Of a stretch of 35,768 bases of DNA, positions 10,892 through 33,846 are shown piece by piece. The stretch comes from Candidatus Altimarinota bacterium (GTDB taxonomy: Bacteria; Patescibacteriota; Gracilibacteria; BD1-5; UBA6164): the NCBI GenBank assembly GCA_022565555.1, contig JAIUMN010000007.1:1-35768 (forward strand), given 5' to 3'. The notes beneath the pieces were generated by a model. That model worked only from the letters and a program-made list of their open reading frames with translations, was not told where the DNA came from and ran no database searches. Positions within the stretch are counted from its first letter, which is position 1; each line of letters begins with the position of its first letter. Position numbers and translations under genes: made by a program.

Positions 10892-11010
10892 GTCTTGGCG
10901 GCTACCTACTCTTGCACATCTACGAGATGCACTACCATCAGCACAAGTTGACTTAACTTCTGTGTTCGAAATGGGAACAGGTGTACCCCAACCGTTATAA
11001 CCACCAAGAC
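10892..11010 (-). rRNA. rrf: 5S ribosomal RNA
   Basis: About 119 bases whose ends pair (GTCTTGG with CCAAGAC). Inside are the conserved CCCATTTCGAACACAGAAG and AGTAGGTAGCCGCC segments. Ends are set by the terminal helix. It lies 91 bases after the 23S gene. Confidence 0.95.
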
Positions 11011-11101
11011 ACTAACATTAAAATTCGTATGAGCATATTTTGCACACATAATCTGATAGTCAAAGTTAATAAGTTCGCATAAATATTTGTAAAATAATAT
11101 T

Positions 11102-14030
<2,929 letters not shown>

Positions 14031-14156
14031 TATAGTATTTACACAACTATTTATAACAATTAACTTATTAACTTAGACTGATCAGATTATGTTAAGGTAC
14101 AAAATAAACAAGATTATTAGAAAAAAAGAAAACCGAATCGTTTTCAGGAAAAATAT

Positions 14157-15630
<1,474 letters not shown>

Positions 15631-15638
15631 CGTAAATG

Positions 15639-19764: not shown

Positions 19765-21819
19765 TTACTTCCCTTCCATAATCCAAACTCCATCCCAGTT
19801 TTTGTCAGGTGGGGTAGTAAGAAAGTTCTCGCTGCGAGAGAGAAGTGTATATGCTGGTTTAAATCACTCAGAAGATAGTTCTCTAAATAATTCAGAGGCT
19901 CGTATGAAATCTTGTTTTCTGTAGAGTTCTAACGCATGCTCATATTGTTCCTTCTGTATAAGTAATTTTTTTGATATCTCTCACTCTTTTCAAAGAAGTT
20001 CATATATCTTGACTCAAATGTCTTTCCCAAGTACTTTAATAGTATCTATCTCACAAAATATATATATCTCTCAAGTATTTTTTACAAATTCTTCACTTAC
20101 ACAGATATATGTTCCATAATATTTATTGACTCACTCAAGCCTTGAAGCAAGATTAATACTATCTCCTAATGCGGTAAAATTCATCTTACGTCATGGTGCT
20201 CAAATATTTCATACAATCGCATCCCCAAGATGGATTCAGGTTCTTACTCTCAGTTCTCTTCAAAGCTTTTGCTTCCAGTGTTTTGAAAGTTTTTTTATAG
20301 CAAGTTTTTGTTCAAGAAGTGATTCACATACTTTGTGGCTTTCTTTCAAATTTAATGACGCGAAAGCTCACCAAAGCGCCATAATAGAATCACCTTCATA
20401 CTTGTCTATGTATGCTCAATGCTTCATAAGTATCTCTGTAAATTCTCAAAGGTACTCACGCAGGAACATAACAAGTTCTTCTGGTGAAAGCTTTTCACTT
20501 ATTTCTGTAAAATGTTCAATATCCGAAAAATATACAATGAGCTCTTTTTTTTCTCCATCAAGGTATACCTTCCCATGTTCATGTAGAACTTCTTCCATAA
20601 TATCAGAACTCACATATTCACTCAGTGCTTTCCCAAGCTTTTGTTTATTAGTATCTTCTATAAGATACTTCACAAGATTTGAAATTCAAAAAGATAGAAA
20701 AAATGATGCTATAATCTCAAAAGGAAAATTAAATATAAGATTTGAAAATAAGAGAATAGTAATGGGAATAAAAAGAGTGAATAAGAAAAAAATAACAAAA
20801 TTTCAGTATACTAAAACGATCGTACGAGAAGAAAAGTTGACACTTACAGAAAGAAGGATGATACAAAAAATAAGCACCCATTCATAAAGACGATGGAAAT
20901 AAAGTAAATACTGATGAGTAAGGAGAGTATTAAGAATATTTGCGTGAATAAAGACTCCATACTCAACTTTGTTTGGAGTAAAAAATTCATCCTTGAGCCC
21001 TTCAGCAGCTGGTCAAATAAGAATTATAGCATCACGTAAGCTTTGATTTTCCTGTATTTCATAGAGTTTCTCTTGATCAAGGATATCAGAAAATGATATA
21101 TAACGGAATGATTCAGGTGATGTAAAACGTATAAGTATTTCTTCTTCATACGGCTTTGAAAGCGGAATATCTCATAGTGGTGAGAAAAAATAACTTCTTG
21201 ATCTATAACTTCAAAATCAAAAATAATCTCGTTCAAAAAGAGTGCTGTAGTAGTTTCTCAGTATCCGGAGTGTAAAATGTTCGAATTCTCATCAATCCTC
21301 AAAAGTTCTTTTCGGACGAAAACTATATACTGTACGATTAGATGCTTCAACAAGAGGAGAGACATATCCATAATCACTATATTGTCAAAATACATCTATT
21401 TGAGGAACATAAACTCTTCATTCTCTATCTATTGAGGCTCATAGAATTACATTTCAGTTATCTTGAAGTGTACGGGAAAGTCTTGCATCTTCAAGTTCTG
21501 TACTTCTATCGAGCAAAAGCAGATCAAGCCCAACTGTTGCAACTCCAAGTCTATTGAGATTTTCTATAGCCTCGGCATATATGGTTCTTTCAAAAGGAAA
21601 TTGTCATATCACATCAAAACTTGGTTCATCAATTCATATTACTACAATATTTGAATTTACTTGAGCTGGGGAAAAAAAGTTTTTAAGATGATAAAATTGA
21701 GTTTGGATATCTTTATTAAAAGATGAAAATGATGAGCTTGCACTCAAGAGAATAAGAAAAACTATACAACTTAAAAAAATAGTAAGGAGTTGTGTATTTT
21801 TTTTAAGTGCGTGTATCAT
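19765..21819 (-). CDS. CHASE2-domain adenylate/guanylate cyclase (class III)
   Basis: Membrane nucleotide cyclase of 684 residues. An N-terminal helix (TIFLSCIVFLILLSA) leads to an extracytoplasmic CHASE2 domain (VVIGIDEPSFD, ATVGLDLLLLDRS, DAIILIGPAAEGLKDEFFTP). Three membrane helices follow (about residues 330-410), then the class III cyclase domain. Metal-binding aspartates are in VYFSDIEHFTEIS and IDKYEGDSIMALWG. The Asn and Arg of NFTALGDSINLASRLEG are the transition-state pair. A tetratricopeptide-like tail ends in NWDGVWIM. The product, cAMP or cGMP, cannot be told from the sequence by eye. The ATG follows the stop of the FecR gene by one base (TAGTATG), so the two are translationally coupled. 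Likely senses something outside the membrane. Confidence 0.93.
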
Positions 21820-21820
21820 A

Positions 21821-23104
21821 CTACCTAAGGAGATTACGTATAGTATCTCAAAAAGTGTCTTCAAGAAAATTATCAATTGCTTCTGAAGTTCCATCAAGTA
21901 TATCTTGAGGACGTATTTGAGATACGTTAGAGATATCAATTTGAAATATTTCCTCTATTGTATTGATACTTCTTTGAAATTCTTGGCGTAACTCAGGAGG
22001 AATACCTTGAAGTCCTCTCTCAAGTATAGTTGTGTCAATACCAGAAACGAGTCAAGGATATCATTCTATAAAATCCAAAATAGACTCTAGTTGCCTCATA
22101 TTTCACCTCTCTATAAGTCAATCGATATCTAAAAGGCTTCTCTCAAGCATACTTTGCCTAAAAGCAGTATCATCACTAAGAAGTACGAGAGCTTTTTGTA
22201 GGAATACCTTTCGCATATATAACTCCTCTTGGTCTGGAGATATAAAATTGTAGTCCTGATATCTTTTTTGAACTGCATTGAAAACTTTCTGCCTTTGTCA
22301 GCTTTTGATCTTTGATATAAGCTCCTCAACACTCTCAAAGCTCTTGGTTGTGTCAATTTCATAGAGAATACGATACTCAGGAAAAAACCATTCCATTATT
22401 TTTAAAAATGGGTTAAATCTTATACTCTTTTGTTCAAGTTCACGTAAAAGTTCAGCTTGATACTCTATATCTGATACTTTATTAAATTCTGTCCAAGCTC
22501 TATCTTGGAATGCTCGGAGAAAGATATCTATATCAATAAATACTTGTTCTACAATATTGTATGGAGTATCAGGAGTAATAATTATTTGATCTCCTTCTCG
22601 AGTAATAAGCTCTATAGCATGTTCACTCGCCCTAATAAATCAAGCCTCAATGTCAACATCAAATACTGTTCCTCGCACTCATGCATCAAATCACTCAAAC
22701 TTTTGAGTAAAAGATGAATCATTTCAAAGAAATGAAATAACCTGTGACCAAGTTCTTCATGAAAATAGCTCAAAAGATATAGTAATTTTTGATCTATCTT
22801 TACTGATATCATTTTGTTCAATCAGAAGTTCACTGGATTCTCATACCCTTGTAATAGATCCATCTCACCATTCTATTACTGCACGACTTTGTACTCAAGT
22901 ACGAATAATGTCTCCGGATATAATTTGCTGCCTTATATCTTGAGGGAGTATATTTTCATTGAGAAATACCTGTCAGTATATTGGACTCACATATGACTGA
23001 GTATCTCGAGTACTTTGTGAATACGCCTCATAAATCTGAAATCAGAGCAACATAATAATTAACGCAATACATCAGAGAAAGAGTTTGTTTTTTAATATTT
23101 TCAT
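21821..23104 (-). CDS. FecR-domain protein, membrane-anchored
   Basis: 427 residues. An N-terminal hydrophobic anchor or signal (KNKLFLGCIALIIMLLGFQIY) precedes a FecR domain at about residues 40-175: GDIIRTGVQSRAVIEWGDGS, then GVRGTVFDV, the typical FecR ending. The rest (about residues 180-427) is helical and of no known family. FecR domains outside iron uptake are often found exported and next to CHASE2 cyclases, where they are thought to pass an envelope signal. Here the gene ends one base before the cyclase ATG. No sigma factor of the FecI type is nearby, so the iron-uptake role is unlikely. Stop TAG. Several UGA glycines, including in GVRGT. Confidence 0.88.
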
Positions 23105-27229: not shown

Positions 27230-29611
27230 TTATGAGAGAAAGAATGGAGTGACTATTTTTGATTTTTCTTTGTGGTAAAAATCAAGCTGAGATATGTCCT
27301 TAATATCATCAATTCATACCTTTCATATATAAAGTTCTTCCAGTAAGCCTCATCAATCAATATAATTTTTTACCTGAGTATACCCATTAAGATATACAAC
27401 ATCCTTCATAAAAATACCTTCTTTAGAGGTATTGTGAACGCCTCTCTTGAGTCGTAAAATATAATCAAATACGCGAGCATAATCGTTATTATAATATTCA
27501 CACATATTTGATACAAGCTTAGAAAATGAATGCTTCTGAGCATAACGTAGGAAAAAATATCGTTCATAAATACCATAAAACTTTTGAAGTTTTGGGGAAA
27601 GGAAACGATTTTGATTATAAATTGCTATACCCTCTTCAGTTGCAAGATATCCCGCGGTTCACTTTTGAAATAAAAAGTAAGGGAGTTTTCGAGCATTAAG
27701 TGTTCGGAGATAGTGTCACTCGATTTCATGAGCAATAATAGATCTAAATTCTTTTTTTCATACATTTGCTGATCTTCGCATAGAGAGAAAGTCTCACTTG
27801 ACTGAAAAGCGTGCTGCACTATCACCTATCTTGAGTTTCAGCTTTATACCGTATATATGGTTAAACTTTTTAATCTCAGAACGTATCTCATCTTCACTCA
27901 GAGGTATTTCTGCTTCTATATCTCATTTTTGAGCAAGTATAGTTTTTGTTATCTCAAAGTTCTCATCCTCTACGATTCAAAAAATACTCTCTCAGAGCTG
28001 AGAAAAACGCTTCATATCTTTTGAAGCATGTGCCTCAACTATATCAAGCTTTTTCATAATCTCTTGCTGCTTTCTAAAAAATAACTCAGAAAGAGGAATA
28101 TCTGGAATATCAATACGACGAAGATTATGTTTCAACTCTTGGATATCTACACTCAGAGGATTATATATAAACTGTGGTGCATATTCGCCTTTTGATGCTA
28201 TAAATTTTTGCTTCTCCTCTCCTACATTAATTGGGTAAAATAATTTCAAAAGTGGAATCTTTTTATCTATATCTCTAAGTTGTATATCAATATCTTGAAG
28301 TATTTTAAACTGACTCTCAGTAATAAGACTATTCACTTCTTTGATTTTAAGGTTTGCAAGATATGGATTTTCTCATTTTTTATACTTGTATGGATCTATA
28401 AAAAACCCTCTGAGAGCTTTTTTTCATAGGAGTAGTTTTTCTCAACTCAACTCTTTACATGTAAAAATTAAAACCCTCTTTATATCCATAAGTGTAGTTT
28501 CTAGGCGCACTTGAAACTGACTCTCTATATCTATGCCAAGCACATCACGCGCAAACTCTTTATCAATATAATTTTCACTCTGAGAGGCTCGAATATCTGC
28601 GATATAGTTATAATTTTTTTCTTTATAGCTAAACTGGAGATACTCCCTCAGTCATAAGAGTTTTTTTCCACTCACAGACTCAACTCGTTCAGAGATAATT
28701 CATCCAAATAAATCTTTTCATAGACGTACTCATTTTTCGATGCTATCAACAATTATTCCATCGACTCGTTTTAGTCTCGCTTCAAGGGGGGCAAGGTTTA
28801 CATTTTGTATTTCAAGTCCTGGGCGTACATTCATCTCAAGAAGAAGTGGTCCATCTTTATCATCTAGAACAATATCACATCAAAGAAATGGTATCTTAGT
28901 CACATATTGAACACGTACTGCAAGGCTTAATATTTTATCCCAATCTGGTAATAAAAGTCACCGCATATCCCCTATTCCAGGAATACTTTTTATCTGCTTT
29001 CCATGATGAGATATATAGGTAAGTCTTCCATTTCCTAAATCTATTCCTATAGCACATGCTCAAGCATGAATATTTGCCTTTCATTTTGACTCAGCTGTTG
29101 GTATACGCATCATAGCCATAACTGGAACACTATTATAAATAATGATACGTATATCCGGAAGTCCATACTTTCAAAGAAGTTCTATATCACTTACAAGCTC
29201 GATTTTTTTTTCGATAAAAATACTATCTCTTCTTCCTGAAAGTGAGAAAAATCCATCTATAATACGTATACAATGCTGGTATATCTGTTTTGAAGTGTAG
29301 ATTTCTCAGCTTGAAGTTATGAAACTTTTATCAGGTCTCTTATCGCCTATAATAAGTATCCCTTTTCCTCAATATCAGTTATTTGGTTTAATAACAAATG
29401 GGGGCTCAAGAGACTCTATAAGTTCCATGCTTATTTCTCAAGTATTTTTTAAGATTGCAAAAGTCTGAGGAACAGCAACTCAATGACCTGAAAGAAATTT
29501 TTTAGTTTTAAGTTTAGAGTCTGCAAGGCGTCTATAATGAGAAAAATCTTCACTTTGTATATAAAGGAGATTTCGTGCATTCTGCCCAAGTACTCCATGA
29601 CTTTTTGGCAT
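27230..29611 (-). CDS. ATP-grasp (alpha-L-glutamate ligase-like) fused to MATCAP/DUF1704-type metallopeptidase
   Basis: 793 residues with two enzyme halves. Residues 1-290 form an ATP-grasp domain of the alpha-L-glutamate ligase-like type: FVIKPNNGYGGKGILII (ATP-binding lysine and glycine loop), PDIRIIIYNSVPVMAMMR, and LLLEMNVRPGLEIQN with the metal-binding Glu and Asn. Residues about 400-780 match the DUF1704 (MATCAP, 'QEGLA-motif') family: IIAHEIEGHYLRT near residue 628 is the zinc HExxxH motif, and LATEEGIAIYNQ near 655 supplies the third ligand. Family knowledge: such ligases add amino acids to protein or peptide ends; MATCAP enzymes remove terminal residues. It lies two bases after ftsX. 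Both active sites look intact. Several UGA glycines fall in the motifs, including in HEIEGH. Confidence 0.85.
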
Positions 29612-29613
29612 AA

Positions 29614-30519
29614 TTATTTTTTAGTTATATATTTTTGAGAAGAGAAAAATCCTGAAAGTCCTCACACAGAGAGAAATATAAGTGCTTGAAGAAAGAGTAT
29701 GATTACTATATTTCACGGATAGACTTCATGAAGTTCAGTCAATTCAAATACATACGATATATTTGTTACAAGAAGTACAAATAAAATCGTAGAAAGTATA
29801 AATGAAATCCCGACATACAACAAAGCCTGAACAGTAAAGGGTCCGGAAAGAAAAAACTTACTTCCTCATACTAACCTCGTTATATATATCTCATCCCGAT
29901 AATAATAGATAAAATTCCCTATGATAGAATATACGATAATAGCAATAGATATAATAAATGTTACTATAATAACATAGAGTCATACTTGAAGAATATTAAG
30001 TACTTGTATCACAGTACTAATACGCTCAAACTGACGAGCATAGCTTGAGAAATACTCTTCAGTCTCTCAGGCAGTTTGCTCCAGAAGGATATACATACGT
30101 TTTTCTATCAGTGTATTGAGTCTTTGATACTCTTGAAGTGGGATATTTTCAAGCGTGATAGTTTCTGGGAGAGGATTTTGAAGCTCTAGAATATTTACTA
30201 ATTCAGGATCACGAGCACGTATCTCCTCAAGTACATCATCTTTATTTTTATAAATAATTTCAATACTTGGTATAGATTGACGTAAATCATTTTTTAAACC
30301 TAATACCTCAAGTGAGTTCTGATCATACTCATCTTTTAGGTACAGTGAAATCGTTAAACGATCATTTATCTCATCTATGATACGGAAACTTACTCCATGT
30401 ATCACAATAAGTATGTTAATAAAAAACATAAGAAGTGTGAGGATAAGTATCGAAGAAAGACTTAAAAAGGTATTTCTGAGAATATTTTGTATCGCGTAGG
30501 AAAGGATGCGAATAAACAT
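29614..30519 (-). CDS. ftsX: Cell-division protein FtsX
   Basis: 301 residues with the FtsX plan. It has one N-terminal helix (FLSLSSILILTLLMFFINILIVI), an extracytoplasmic domain with LTISLYLKDEYDQ and the typical DVLEEIRARDPELVNIL, and three C-terminal helices (LYVIIVTFIISIAIIVYSIIG, FTVQALLYVGISFILSTILF, VILFLQALIFLSVGG) with the EIYITRLVGGSKFF coupling segment between them. FtsEX regulates peptidoglycan hydrolases at division. ftsE is not next to it, which is unusual. Its stop is two bases before the ATG of the ligase-peptidase gene, so the two are likely co-transcribed. No Shine-Dalgarno site. UGA codes the glycines of LVGGSK. Confidence 0.9.
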
Positions 30520-30693: not shown

Positions 30694-33600
30694 ATGAATA
30701 GTGTTCAGTATCCAAGTTATCATCCTGCGGTACAGGAGTTACGCAGACTAAGAGAAGAGCCAATGGATAGAGAAAATGCACAAAACTTTCTTAACTATCT
30801 TGAAAGACAATTTCCAAATTGATCTTGGGAACGGCACCTATCCCCAAAACAAGAAGTTGAAGCATACCTAAATCGACTAGATAGAATCAACTATAATTGG
30901 GCAGCAGATATTAGAAACTCTATTAGAAGTACAAATCATCAAATAAATGCGCTTCGACAAGATGTACATCCCTCAGATACAGAGCCAGCCTCAATACAAA
31001 GTGTAACATCTCAAAATCTTGAAAATATCAATATAAGTAGAGAATTAGCGTATGCTTTATGAGAAAGTACTATCAGTAATCCTTTAACGAGAGAGGCGAT
31101 ATATAGATATCAGCAAAGGCAAAACATATCTTCTGATAGAATTATTTGAAGAGAGACATATTTAGAAATGAGAGCTTGAGAAATAAATAATGGCATCAGG
31201 AGTTCAATAGATAATATAAATGGTCTTAGTGATAGAATATATGATATAAAGTTAATCTTAGAGAACTGAACAAAAACTTGAGTAAATGTCATTGCACTTC
31301 GTTTACTTTTAAGAAGTTTTGAAAATACACATGAGGATAATCCTCAATTTAATAATCTTTATCAAGAGTTTTTCAATTGGTATAATGATTGGGAAGAATG
31401 ATACAATAACTCTGAACAGGGACTACGAGATACAGAAATAATAGACACTCTCCTTTCTGGGGATGAGCTTCCTTGAGATATAGATGAAACCCCTGAACAA
31501 AGAGAACAAAGACAAAGCTTATATCGTAGAATCCAAAGTGGTGAATATTGAGCAGAAGAGGCTCTCAGAGATGTATGAAATCTTGCAACACATCCTTTTG
31601 TATTACTTATTATATGATGACTCTTTTTATTTGGGAAATTTGGAGCTTGAAGCAAATTTACTGACGCTTTTTGGAAACGTGCACTTTTATTATGAGTCTG
31701 AATCTTTAATCTTGATAGCTTAAGAGATATGAGAGATGATGCTATAAGTGGGTATAATAACCACATAAGTCCACGTCACGAGTCAGAGTGAGCACGGGAA
31801 AATATTTATAGAAACTGGAATAATGAAAACTCTGAATTAAGACAGCATTTTCCTGATAGTGGCTTTTTTGAAGCAGTAGAAAATAAATTTACTGAAGATT
31901 CTGCTCTCAGGTTCATTAAACTGGAAGATATATCTGGATATATCGAAAAAATAAATGAAGGAAATATTTCTGAACTTCCTTGATTTCTTCAAAATATAGA
32001 AGTCAGCGGACAACAACTTACTCCAGAACAACTACGAGCATATCTCAATAGCCTTCTTGTTGCATGACAATGAACATCTTATACATATATTCACGAAATT
32101 AATGATGAGCCAAGACCTCTAACACTTGCATCAACTATGACAGTTATTAGTTGAGGATTTGCACTTTGAGCAGCAGTACTTGGAGCACCATTTACTGCAT
32201 GAGTTGCAGCTCTTGTATGAACAGGTTCGATTGTAGCAAAAATGGCTTGATATGATATATCTCTATCTGATTTAATAGCTAAGCTTCAGGCAACACCCGA
32301 GTGAAGTCGAGCTTTGAGAGAATTCAATGAAATTCTTGAGACTCTTCCTGAATGAAGTGAGGTAAAAAATGAGGTCGTATCAATATTACAAAGTGAAACT
32401 TGAAATAAGATTGAATGACTACAATGATTGAAGCAAAGATTTCCTGAGTATAGTGAAATAATTGATAACATTATCTTAAGGTCAGTATCAATCCAATCAA
32501 CTACAATAGAAGTAAGTTTTTTCCATTCTGATTTTTGGTGAAGACTTTGAGTAAGAGAACTTGAGAGTGATGAAATACAACAACAAATGGATGCACTTGA
32601 AACACTTCGTTCAAGTATAAGTTGAATAAGTGGAAATGAATCCGTATGAGAACAGATTAATACACTTATCGAAAGACTTGAGACTGAAAAAATACAAAAA
32701 ATTAATGAAGAAGCTTCAAGGGAAAGAATAAATATATTAGAAGCTCCTTGAAGAATAGAAGGAGATATAACAACCTTAAGGTGAGAAATAGAATCTCTTC
32801 AAGCAAGAATAATAATTGAGGAAAGCAACTTAAGGTCTGCGACTGATAGTCAAAATCAAGAACGAATTCGATGAATAATAGAAGATTTACATAGTACTGT
32901 AAGAGATAAAAGACTACAAATACAACAACTTGAATCACAGTTTCCAGAAGCACAAAGGTCTCGTTCAGATATACTTGTTGAAGACGGGATACGATTTGCA
33001 AATAATCTTATTGCAACTATTCCAAGCAATATAGAATCGTTAAATATTACTGATATTCGAAGAATTTTAAGTGATTATGATTCATCTCGAAGAACATTAG
33101 AAAGATATGTAGAAGATAGTACCTATGCGTGAAATGAAAAAAAACAATTACTAGAGAGTCTCTATTGAGATTTCAATGAGATATTAGAAAGTCTTGAAGT
33201 AAGATTAGAAATAGAAGAACAAAGAATTATAGAATCTCATGAACAAATATTACAAGACATAGAGGATAGAGTAAGAGATTTTGATTTTCTTGATTCTGAT
33301 ACTCTGGAACGACTACAAAACTTCTTCTCTTCACAAATAAGAGAAGAAAACCAAGAAATGCTTGAACGGGGATCTAGAGATATCTCAGAAATTGAGTCTC
33401 TTTATATAGAAAAAATTATACAGCTTCGTGAAAATATGATCCAGGAAATACAAGATTTAGATACCTTTAATATACAAACTGCACGAGAGAGAGTAAATGA
33501 GATACAACAACTCGATAGTCTCATGGAAAGTATGTCATGGCAGTGAGATATAACAAGTCTCAGTGACCTACAAGAGTATATAAGAACCCAAGTACCTTTT

Positions 33601-33846
33601 GTACTTATAGACTGAGTATGAGAGGTTGTAACAGAATTTCGAGATATAAAAGATAGTGAAAATAATTTTATAATTCCTGATGATATTAGGTGAAATATCG
33701 ATGTAGTACTAGAAAGAGACGAAACAAAAATCAGTGAATTAATAGATGTTATTTCAAGGCCAGCATTTAATAATATAAGAGAAAACACTATTCGTGACGG
33801 AAAAAATATTATTCAACTATTAGAAGAACTCTCATCAATATCATAA
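30694..33846 (+). CDS. Giant membrane-anchored coiled-coil protein of unknown family (first of tandem pair)
   Basis: 1050 residues, one open frame only when UGA is glycine; by hand I count about 42 UGA codons against about 20 GGN. The N-terminal 290 residues are hydrophilic and helical. Hydrophobic segment 1 is HPFVLLIIGGLFLFGKF (about residues 299-315). Segment 2, about residues 475-510, is Gly/Ala-rich (ISGGFALGAAVLGAPFTAG, VAALVGTG). After residue about 600 the protein is almost all long charged helix with heptad-like patterns (LETLRSSISGI, INTLIERLETEKIQKI, IEDLHSTVRDKRLQIQQLES). No catalytic motif was seen. Start ATG 30694 has no Shine-Dalgarno site. The next gene starts 12 bases after its TAA in the same frame phase. 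A structural or surface role is a guess. Confidence 0.8.

What the first reader, a model, noticed from the sequence alone, without database searches (positions are those of the whole stretch)
27230..29611. Amino-acid ligase and terminal-residue peptidase fused in one protein, coupled to ftsX
Seen: an ATP-grasp domain with intact ATP and metal motifs, joined to a DUF1704/MATCAP domain with intact HExxxH. Known: related ligases add glutamate or other residues to protein or peptide ends, and eukaryotic MATCAP removes the C-terminal tyrosine from tubulin. Inference: one polypeptide could add and remove the same residue, an 'edit' switch, perhaps on a cell-envelope or division protein, since ftsX is two bases upstream.
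Basis: partly seen in the sequence, partly recalled or inferred. Interest (0 to 1): 0.75.

Follow-up and report, generated by a model that had tools for sequence, protein, structure and literature searches.

The report
Fused glutamate writer and eraser enzyme
One protein of a tiny, uncultured bacterium (Candidatus Gracilibacteria) joins an enzyme that adds amino acids, probably glutamate, to protein ends to a zinc enzyme of the family that trims the tails of our own microtubules; its likely target is the glutamate-glutamate end of a partner membrane protein, so a bacterial 'tail code' becomes directly testable.

Summary
Window 27230-29611 (-) encodes a 793-aa protein only with TGA read as Gly (28 TGA codons). 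It contains an RloC/RimK-like ATP-grasp ligase and a MATCAP zinc carboxypeptidase; every motif residue I checked is invariant in 29 fusions. ftsX ends two bases upstream, but only one family shows that linkage. The fusion itself is found across several Patescibacteria groups.

(1) Between the two enzymes lies a third domain, a degenerate RloA/RimB retropepsin: DTG is kept in 7/89 fusions but 10/11 unfused relatives, so MATCAP appears to have replaced the older peptidase. (2) The true partner is an RloB-like PKD-7TM membrane protein, directly upstream in 58/63 loci and co-occurring with the fusion in 36 of 38 relatives that carry either. This is a patescibacterial version of the Pseudomonas Rlo system. 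(3) That partner ends in Glu-Glu in 78/81 fused cases, against 0.5% background and 2/22 unfused, although neighbouring positions vary freely.

Best mechanism (0.5): the ligase adds Glu to, and MATCAP trims Glu from, the partner's cytosolic C-terminus. Domains, module and tail are shown; activity, amino acid and substrate are inferred. New variant of a known kind.

The parts
27230..29611 (-). Whole fusion gene (793 aa, TGA=Gly): RloC-like ATP-grasp ligase + degenerate retropepsin + MATCAP carboxypeptidase
   Evidence: full-length homologues
28712..29602 (-). ATP-grasp domain, residues 4-300 (RloC / TIGR02291-like; K75, P-loop G79-G84, D153/R155, R169, D246, E259/N261)
   Evidence: PF14397 E 6.6e-53; TIGR02291 6e-67; RimK Z 17.3; 35% identity to Legionella RloC
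28370..28705 (-). Degenerate RloA/RimB-like retropepsin domain, residues 303-414; catalytic DTG lost in this protein (ADIRASQ at that place)
   Evidence: hhalign 99.7%, E 4e-26 against intact retropepsin tails; motif table; separate model Z 11.1-11.5 to RloA, RloA2 and lpg0085
27233..28321 (-). MATCAP metallocarboxypeptidase domain, residues 431-793
   Evidence: PF08014 E 3.1e-31; human MATCAP Z 24.2; profile vs 7z5g E 2.7e-26
27713..27730 (-). Zinc motif HEIEGH (H628, E629, H633)
   Evidence: invariant in 29 fusions; aligned to H280/E281/H285 of human MATCAP
27629..27637 (-). EEG motif; E660 = presumed third metal ligand (human E316)
   Evidence: invariant in 29 fusions; aligned to human EEG; E316A strongly lowers human activity (PMC10499314)
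29614..30519 (-). ftsX, 2 bp upstream, probably co-transcribed in this family; genomic neighbour, not the conserved partner
   Evidence: TIGR00439 1.1e-19; adjacent in 18/20 loci of the same family

Best explanation
The protein is a bifunctional writer-eraser of C-terminal glutamate and the enzymatic half of a patescibacterial Rlo-type module. The ATP-grasp (RloC/RimK-like) domain activates a C-terminal carboxylate as acyl-phosphate with ATP and ligates an amino acid, most likely L-glutamate. The MATCAP zinc domain removes C-terminal glutamates one at a time. The middle retropepsin-like domain is the eroded ancestral RloA/RimB eraser, now probably a linker or scaffold. The most likely substrate is the cytosolic C-terminus of the partner RloB-like membrane protein (signal peptide, extracytoplasmic PKD-type region, 7 TM), which ends in -Glu-Glu. 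The length of its acidic tail would report or set the state of this envelope protein. SHOWN by computation: domains, motif conservation, fusion history, RloB-like partnership and co-occurrence, retropepsin decay, -EE tail. INFERRED: catalysis by either domain, glutamate as the residue, the tail as substrate, physiological output (perhaps osmotic or envelope stress, as for Pseudomonas Rlo). My probabilities: both active sites functional 0.8; works with the RloB-like protein 0.85; residue is Glu 0.7; substrate is the -EE tail 0.5.
For: Both domains keep their motif residues and folds. The MATCAP family is a C-terminal carboxypeptidase that removes Tyr and Glu; human TMCP2 is most active on a Glu-ending tail and TMCPs shorten poly-Glu (PMC10499314). 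RimK, the closest solved ligase, adds Glu to RpsF, and RloA and RimB cut poly-Glu (PMC11957791, PMC12239564). Fusion and 7TM gene co-occur 36/1/1/22 in 60 relatives (p 4e-14); PF08014 and PF14402 co-occur 33/7/25/127 in 192 Patescibacteria (p 7e-15). 7TM is directly upstream in 58/63 loci. In the fused set the last residue is E in 80/81 and the one before in 78/81 (entropy 0.10 and 0.26 bits, against 2.6-3.3 at positions -3 to -7); background 3/600 ORFs. Eleven of 11 unlinked 7TM genes of fusion-bearing genomes in the window's family also end -EE, so a ribosome-binding site for the fusion gene cannot explain it; 23 linked cases have gaps over 40 nt. Outside the fused clade, MATCAP is often encoded beside an ATP-grasp gene that carries an intact retropepsin. 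In Pseudomonas, loss of RloB or RloC rescues loss of the RloA erasers, as expected if RloC writes what RloA removes.
Against: No activity has been shown for any RloC-type ligase or any bacterial MATCAP in the papers found. P0001 lies below the NCBIfam equivalog cut-offs of TIGR02291 and TIGR02421. All fusions form one clade, so the link between fusion and -EE rests on about one independent contrast; what is strong is retention of -EE within that deep clade. Legionella RloB ends ARS, most unfused patescibacterial RloB-like proteins do not end -EE, and one with intact DTG does (L124), so the tail is not a general Rlo substrate. In Pseudomonas RloA is periplasmic, while the fusion has no predicted TM segment. 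C-in topology of the 7TM protein is from a hydropathy count plus its signal peptide only.
Confidence: 0.5

Rival explanations
1. Free poly-alpha-glutamate homeostasis: the ligase builds free poly-Glu (as RimK also does), MATCAP trims it, and the RloB-like 7TM protein exports, anchors or senses the polymer; its -EE end is a primer or docking site rather than a regulated tail.
For: RimK makes free poly-alpha-L-glutamate and RimB stimulates it; glutamate is an osmolyte and rlo mutants are osmosensitive (PMC11957791, PMC12239564). RloA is periplasmic in Pseudomonas, which fits an exported polymer.
Against: In the fusion the eraser is cytosolic and tethered to the writer, which would be futile for making an exported polymer. 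A strictly terminal -EE on the partner is explained more directly if it is the acceptor.
Confidence: 0.22
2. The fusion edits the C-terminus of another protein (division or envelope factor), and the -EE end of the RloB-like protein is a static feature (interaction motif or protection from tail-specific proteases).
For: ftsX is adjacent within 2-101 bp in 18 of 20 loci of the window's family. RimK's known target is a ribosomal protein.
Against: ftsX linkage is confined to one family; FtsX ends KK and FtsZ and RpsF of this genome do not end in Glu. A static motif would not be expected to be rare in the unfused clade, though that contrast is not phylogenetically independent.
Confidence: 0.18
3. 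The ligase adds a different residue or modifies a small molecule or cell-surface polymer (Pfam calls the family sugar-transfer associated; RimK-like relatives act in cofactor, LysW and cyanophycin pathways), and MATCAP processes that product.
For: The best structural neighbours after RimK include ArgX/LysX and cyanophycin synthetase; other patescibacterial loci carry several further ATP-grasp genes and an N-formylglutamate-amidohydrolase-like gene beside MATCAP.
Against: TIGR02291 is by far the best family; the MATCAP fold is a protein-tail carboxypeptidase where tested; no carrier protein or polymer gene was recognised as recurring beside the fusion (clusters, most not annotated).
Confidence: 0.08
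4. One catalytic site is dead or regulatory, as has already happened to the middle retropepsin, so the protein only adds or only removes.
For: The middle domain shows that eraser sites in this protein family do decay.
Against: All ATP, metal and zinc motif residues checked are invariant in 29 fusions of 29-56% identity to the window protein.
Confidence: 0.1

Closest known systems
RloABC operon (Pseudomonas aeruginosa; PMC12239564)
   Same: RloC-type ATP-grasp (35% identity to Legionella RloC), a 7TM_transglut RloB-like partner, an RloA-fold domain, and an eraser for acidic tails
   Different: Eraser is a cytosolic MATCAP zinc carboxypeptidase fused to the ligase, not a secreted retropepsin; the retropepsin remnant is degenerate; RloB-like protein has PKD instead of transglutaminase; its C-terminus is -EE
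RimBK hybrid / RimK + RimB (PMC11957791)
   Same: Glutamate ligase and poly-Glu protease of the same tail in one polypeptide
   Different: RimBK order is retropepsin-RimK; here the order is ligase - dead retropepsin - MATCAP; ligase is nearer RloC than RimK; RpsF of this genome lacks a Glu end
Tubulin TTL/TTLL and MATCAP/TMCP (KIAA0895L, KIAA0895; PMC10499314)
   Same: ATP-grasp writer opposed by a MATCAP-family eraser on acidic C-terminal tails
   Different: Separate eukaryotic proteins acting on tubulin; here one bacterial protein; no tubulin was looked for and FtsZ is not Glu-ended
Proteobacterial QEGLA (TIGR02421) operon, e.g. Shinella plasmid L162
   Same: MATCAP-family gene next to an ATP-grasp (glutathione synthase) gene
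   Different: Separate genes, an N-formylglutamate amidohydrolase neighbour, no RloB

Membership tests
RloC / alpha-L-glutamate ligase-like (TIGR02291; PF14397) | Profile score above curated cut-off | tested here: inconclusive
   PF14397 180 bits vs cut-off 31.4 (met); TIGR02291 225.9 bits vs 314.2 (best family, cut-off not met). Filed as RloC-like, not as the equivalog.
RloC / alpha-L-glutamate ligase-like (TIGR02291; PF14397) | ATP-grasp catalytic Lys and acidic metal ligands (E..N) | tested here: met
   K75, D246, E259, N261, R263 invariant in 29 fusions
RloC / alpha-L-glutamate ligase-like (TIGR02291; PF14397) | ATP-dependent ligation of glutamate | not testable with these tools
   needs enzymology
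MATCAP (PF08014) | Profile above gathering score and MATCAP fold | tested here: met
   109 bits vs 27; Z 24.2, 2.7 A, 278 residues to 7z5g
MATCAP (PF08014) | HExxxH plus EEG third ligand | tested here: met
   H628, E629, H633, E660 invariant in 29 fusions, aligned to human E281/E316
MATCAP (PF08014) | Carboxypeptidase activity on C-terminal Tyr/Glu | not testable with these tools
   needs assay
TIGR02421 (QEGLA equivalog) | Score above curated cut-off | tested here: not met
   137.8 vs 338.65 bits
RloA/RimB retropepsins (PF05618), for residues 303-414 | Homology and fold | tested here: met
   hhalign E 4e-26 to PF05618-bearing tails; Z 11.1-11.5 to RloA, RloA2 and lpg0085
RloA/RimB retropepsins (PF05618), for residues 303-414 | Catalytic D-T-G motif | tested here: not met
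   lost in this protein and in 82/89 fusions; DTG kept in 10/11 unfused relatives
RloABC-type system | RloB-like 7TM_transglut protein encoded with RloC | tested here: met
   58/63 loci directly upstream; in the window genome present but unlinked, PF14402 57.4 bits vs 25
RloABC-type system | NCBIfam RloB (NF052267) cut-off and transglutaminase domain | tested here: not met
   28.6 and 65.4 bits vs 900; N-terminal part is PKD-type. Called RloB-like only.
RloABC-type system | Secreted RloA protease | tested here: not met
   no PF05618 match in G000; the fusion shows no TM segment or signal-like stretch by hydropathy
FtsX | FtsX profile | tested here: inconclusive
   TIGR00439 1.1e-19 but 70.8 bits vs cut-off 255; Pfam FtsX and ECD domains weak and below cut-off

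The most novel reading that the evidence does not exclude
Patescibacteria carry a bacterial 'tail code': one enzyme writes and erases poly-glutamate on the cytosolic -Glu-Glu end of a 7TM envelope protein, using an ATP-grasp writer and a MATCAP eraser, the same pair of families that edits tubulin tails in eukaryotes. In this clade the MATCAP domain took over from an older retropepsin eraser whose remnant still sits between the two enzymes. RloB-type proteins would then be the missing substrate of Rlo-type systems.
Probability: 0.42. Interest if true: 0.87.

Novelty: new variant of a known kind. Interest (0 to 1): 0.7.

Why it matters
The authors of the Rlo work state that the physiological substrate of the system is unknown and possibly a protein poly-glutamylated after translation (PMC12239564); RpsF and the Legionella SdeA are the only bacterial proteins they name as poly-glutamylated. 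The fusion ties writer and eraser together, shows that a retropepsin eraser was probably replaced by a MATCAP carboxypeptidase in evolution, and points to a concrete acceptor: the -EE end of the RloB-like partner. That turns an open question into a peptide assay. It would also extend the opposition of ATP-grasp and MATCAP enzymes, known from the tubulin code, to bacterial envelope biology, in a group of bacteria with very few characterised proteins.

Tried and rejected
FtsX as the conserved partner: rejected, adjacency is limited to one family and 7TM adjacency is the widespread state. FtsZ or RpsF as obvious Glu-ended substrates in this genome: not supported, they end FLRKKK and NLEA. The -EE tail as a by-product of a ribosome-binding site for the next gene: rejected, because 11/11 unlinked copies keep it, 23 gaps exceed 40 nt and codons are mostly GAA GAA. 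Independent-contrast test of fusion vs -EE: only 1 supported pair, uninformative. P. aeruginosa RloB tail not obtained (Legionella RloB used instead). Literature: no paper with DUF1704 + ATP-grasp or KIAA0895 + ATP-grasp in the held library; the Iyer et al. 2009 amidoligase paper, which might mention DUF1704 neighbourhoods, is not held, so priority for the association cannot be excluded. Structure search of the whole model did not list retropepsins for residues 303-414; the domain had to be folded alone. That separate model used an alignment that included five intact-DTG relatives. An early middle-domain alignment failed on wrong coordinates and was redone.

Full report
1. What is there. The window belongs to a Candidatus Gracilibacteria-type genome (G000, 1.02 Mb in 49 contigs; named relatives) that reads TGA as glycine: under table 11 most genes are fragments, under table 25 they are whole. 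At 27230..29611 (-) lies a single 793-aa ORF with 28 TGA codons. hmmscan gives ATPgrasp_ST (25-284, 6.6e-53) and MATCAP (468-776, 3.1e-31), with RloC-type TIGR02291 (6e-67) and TIGR02421 (5.4e-40) as best NCBIfam families, the latter two below their equivalog cut-offs. The AlphaFold model (pLDDT 85.7) matches human MATCAP over 455-793 (Z 24.2, 2.7 A, 278 residues) and RimK over 6-287 (Z 17.3, 3.3 A, 215 residues). In 29 fusions of 29-56% identity to the window protein, K75, G82, G84, D153, R155, R169, D246, E259, N261, R263 (ligase) and H628, E629, H633, E660 (zinc site) never change. The human equivalents E281 and E316 are needed for activity (PMC10499314).

2. Distribution. 37 of 60 relatives have a match to the protein; most are full-length fusions of about 780-830 aa, a few are partial or ligase-only. 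All 80 best loci in a scan of 84,980 species genomes match over both domains, from Gracili-, Peregrini-, Peri-, Magasanik- and Parcubacteria. Elsewhere in Patescibacteria the two halves are separate genes, directly adjacent (L112, L114, L121, L126) or a few genes apart (L115-L118, L120, L122, L124). The ATP-grasp tree puts all fusions in one well-supported clade with 2 changes of state; the single unfused label inside it, L177, comes from a locus cut short (G214 has a 792-aa fusion frame).

3. A third domain. The part between the enzymes (303-414) was overlooked. In unfused relatives the ATP-grasp protein ends in a PF05618 retropepsin domain with the motif (I/V)DTGA. Profile comparison of the fusions' middle part with these tails gives 99.7% probability, E 4e-26, and the flanking motifs SGK.V.G..E and IxGxxxLxxFLxDP are shared. 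Folded alone, its best PDB matches are RloA, RloA2 and lpg0085 (Foldseek 5e-5; Z 11.1-11.5). The catalytic DTG is kept in 10/11 unfused relatives and in 7/89 fusions, the latter in Peregrinibacteria-type sequences. The simplest history is RloC joined to RloA, then MATCAP added, then the retropepsin site decayed.

4. The partner. The gene directly upstream of the fusion in 58 of 63 testable loci is a secreted-PKD plus 7TM_transglut protein (PF14402 1e-27 to 2e-34), i.e. RloB-like. In the window's genome it is present but unlinked (contig C6; L141 1480-3027 -, 515 aa) and hits NCBIfam RloB with E 5.9e-7, far below its cut-off. Fusion and 7TM gene co-occur in 36 of the 38 relatives that carry either (p 4e-14). 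Across 192 Patescibacteria MATCAP and PF14402 co-occur 33/7/25/127 (p 7e-15). A Legionella plasmid carries the canonical RloA-RloB-RloC order, and its RloC is 35% identical to P0001. So the module is a relative of RloABC, with MATCAP in place of the secreted RloA protease.

5. The tail. RloB-like proteins of fusion loci end in Glu-Glu: last residue E in 80/81, the one before in 78/81, entropies 0.10 and 0.26 bits, whereas positions -3 to -7 have 2.6-3.3 bits, and the number of residues after the RF(R/K) motif varies from 7 to 11. Background in the same loci is 3/600. Unfused systems end otherwise in 20 of 22 cases (after moving L177 to fused). The two exceptions are L121, whose retropepsin is NTG and whose MATCAP is adjacent, and L124, whose retropepsin is intact. 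All 11 unlinked copies from fusion-bearing genomes of the window's family keep -EE; G021, which has a ligase without MATCAP, ends ISE. This cannot be a ribosome-binding site for the fusion gene. Because the fused proteins are one clade, the fused/unfused contrast is close to one event and its Fisher p values should not be taken at face value; the retention of -EE over the depth of that clade is the stronger argument.

6. Mechanism. RimK adds Glu to protein C-termini; RloA and RimB cut poly-Glu; human TMCP2 prefers Glu-ending tails and TMCPs shorten poly-Glu chains (PMC11957791, PMC12239564, PMC10499314). A signal peptide, an extracytoplasmic domain and seven TM helices put the RloB-like C-terminus in the cytosol (hydropathy only), where the fusion must be. 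I therefore propose reversible glutamylation of the RloB-like -EE end by the fused ligase and carboxypeptidase. In Pseudomonas, deletion of rloB or rloC rescues loss of the RloA erasers, the genetic pattern expected for writer and acceptor against eraser, although RloA is periplasmic there. Rivals: free poly-Glu metabolism, another protein target, a different residue, one dead site.

7. Known or new. RimBK hybrids (retropepsin + RimK) and RloABC are published; the retropepsin activity of one RimBK has been shown. I found no report of a MATCAP-ATP-grasp fusion or of bacterial MATCAP activity in the held library; the 2009 amidoligase survey that could mention gene neighbourhoods is not held. New variant of a known kind.

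8. The ftsX link. ftsX adjacency is real (2 bp here; 18/20 loci of the family) and suggests co-expression with division genes in that family. It is not shared by the rest of the fusion clade, and FtsX itself does not end in Glu.

Noticed in passing
L002 1303-2865 (-), G000 contig C2 45053-45694: Second, solo MATCAP-like protein (520 aa; HEIESH and EEG motifs; PF08014 4.7e-7) in the window's genome; similar weak second matches appear in several relatives. Substrate unknown.
   Followed up: partly
L116, L117, L118: Between the RloC-type ligase and the MATCAP gene lie three further ATP-grasp/RimK-type genes (about 328, 570 and 318 aa), suggesting a longer peptide-building pathway in that family (for L117).
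   Followed up: partly
L122 5911-8673 (-): Triple fusion ATPgrasp_ST - PF05618 retropepsin (DTG intact) - second ATP-grasp, 921 aa, beside a divergent MATCAP gene.
   Followed up: no
L133 (G021, same family as the window): RloB-like plus RloC-like genes without MATCAP, branching with the unfused clade; RloB-like tail ends ISE. Looks like horizontal replacement of the system.
   Followed up: partly
window 19765-21939 (-): CHASE2 + adenylate/guanylate cyclase catalytic domain, with a FecR-domain gene upstream (21821-23104): a cyclic-nucleotide signalling gene in a reduced genome.
   Followed up: no
window 30694-33846 (+): 1050-aa largely coiled-coil-looking protein with only weak matches (PG_binding_1 0.024), divergent from ftsX.
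   Followed up: no
window 10893-15631 (-): Complete 16S-23S-5S rRNA operon flanked by tRNA genes; explains the stretch without ORFs.
   Followed up: yes
window 29614-30519 (-): ftsX is not next to an ftsE gene here; the best FtsE-like ATPase of the genome is on another contig (C35, below the family cut-off).
   Followed up: partly
L064: A record labelled Nitrospirota MAG carries the fusion and nests among peregrinibacterial sequences; probably a mis-binned contig.
   Followed up: no
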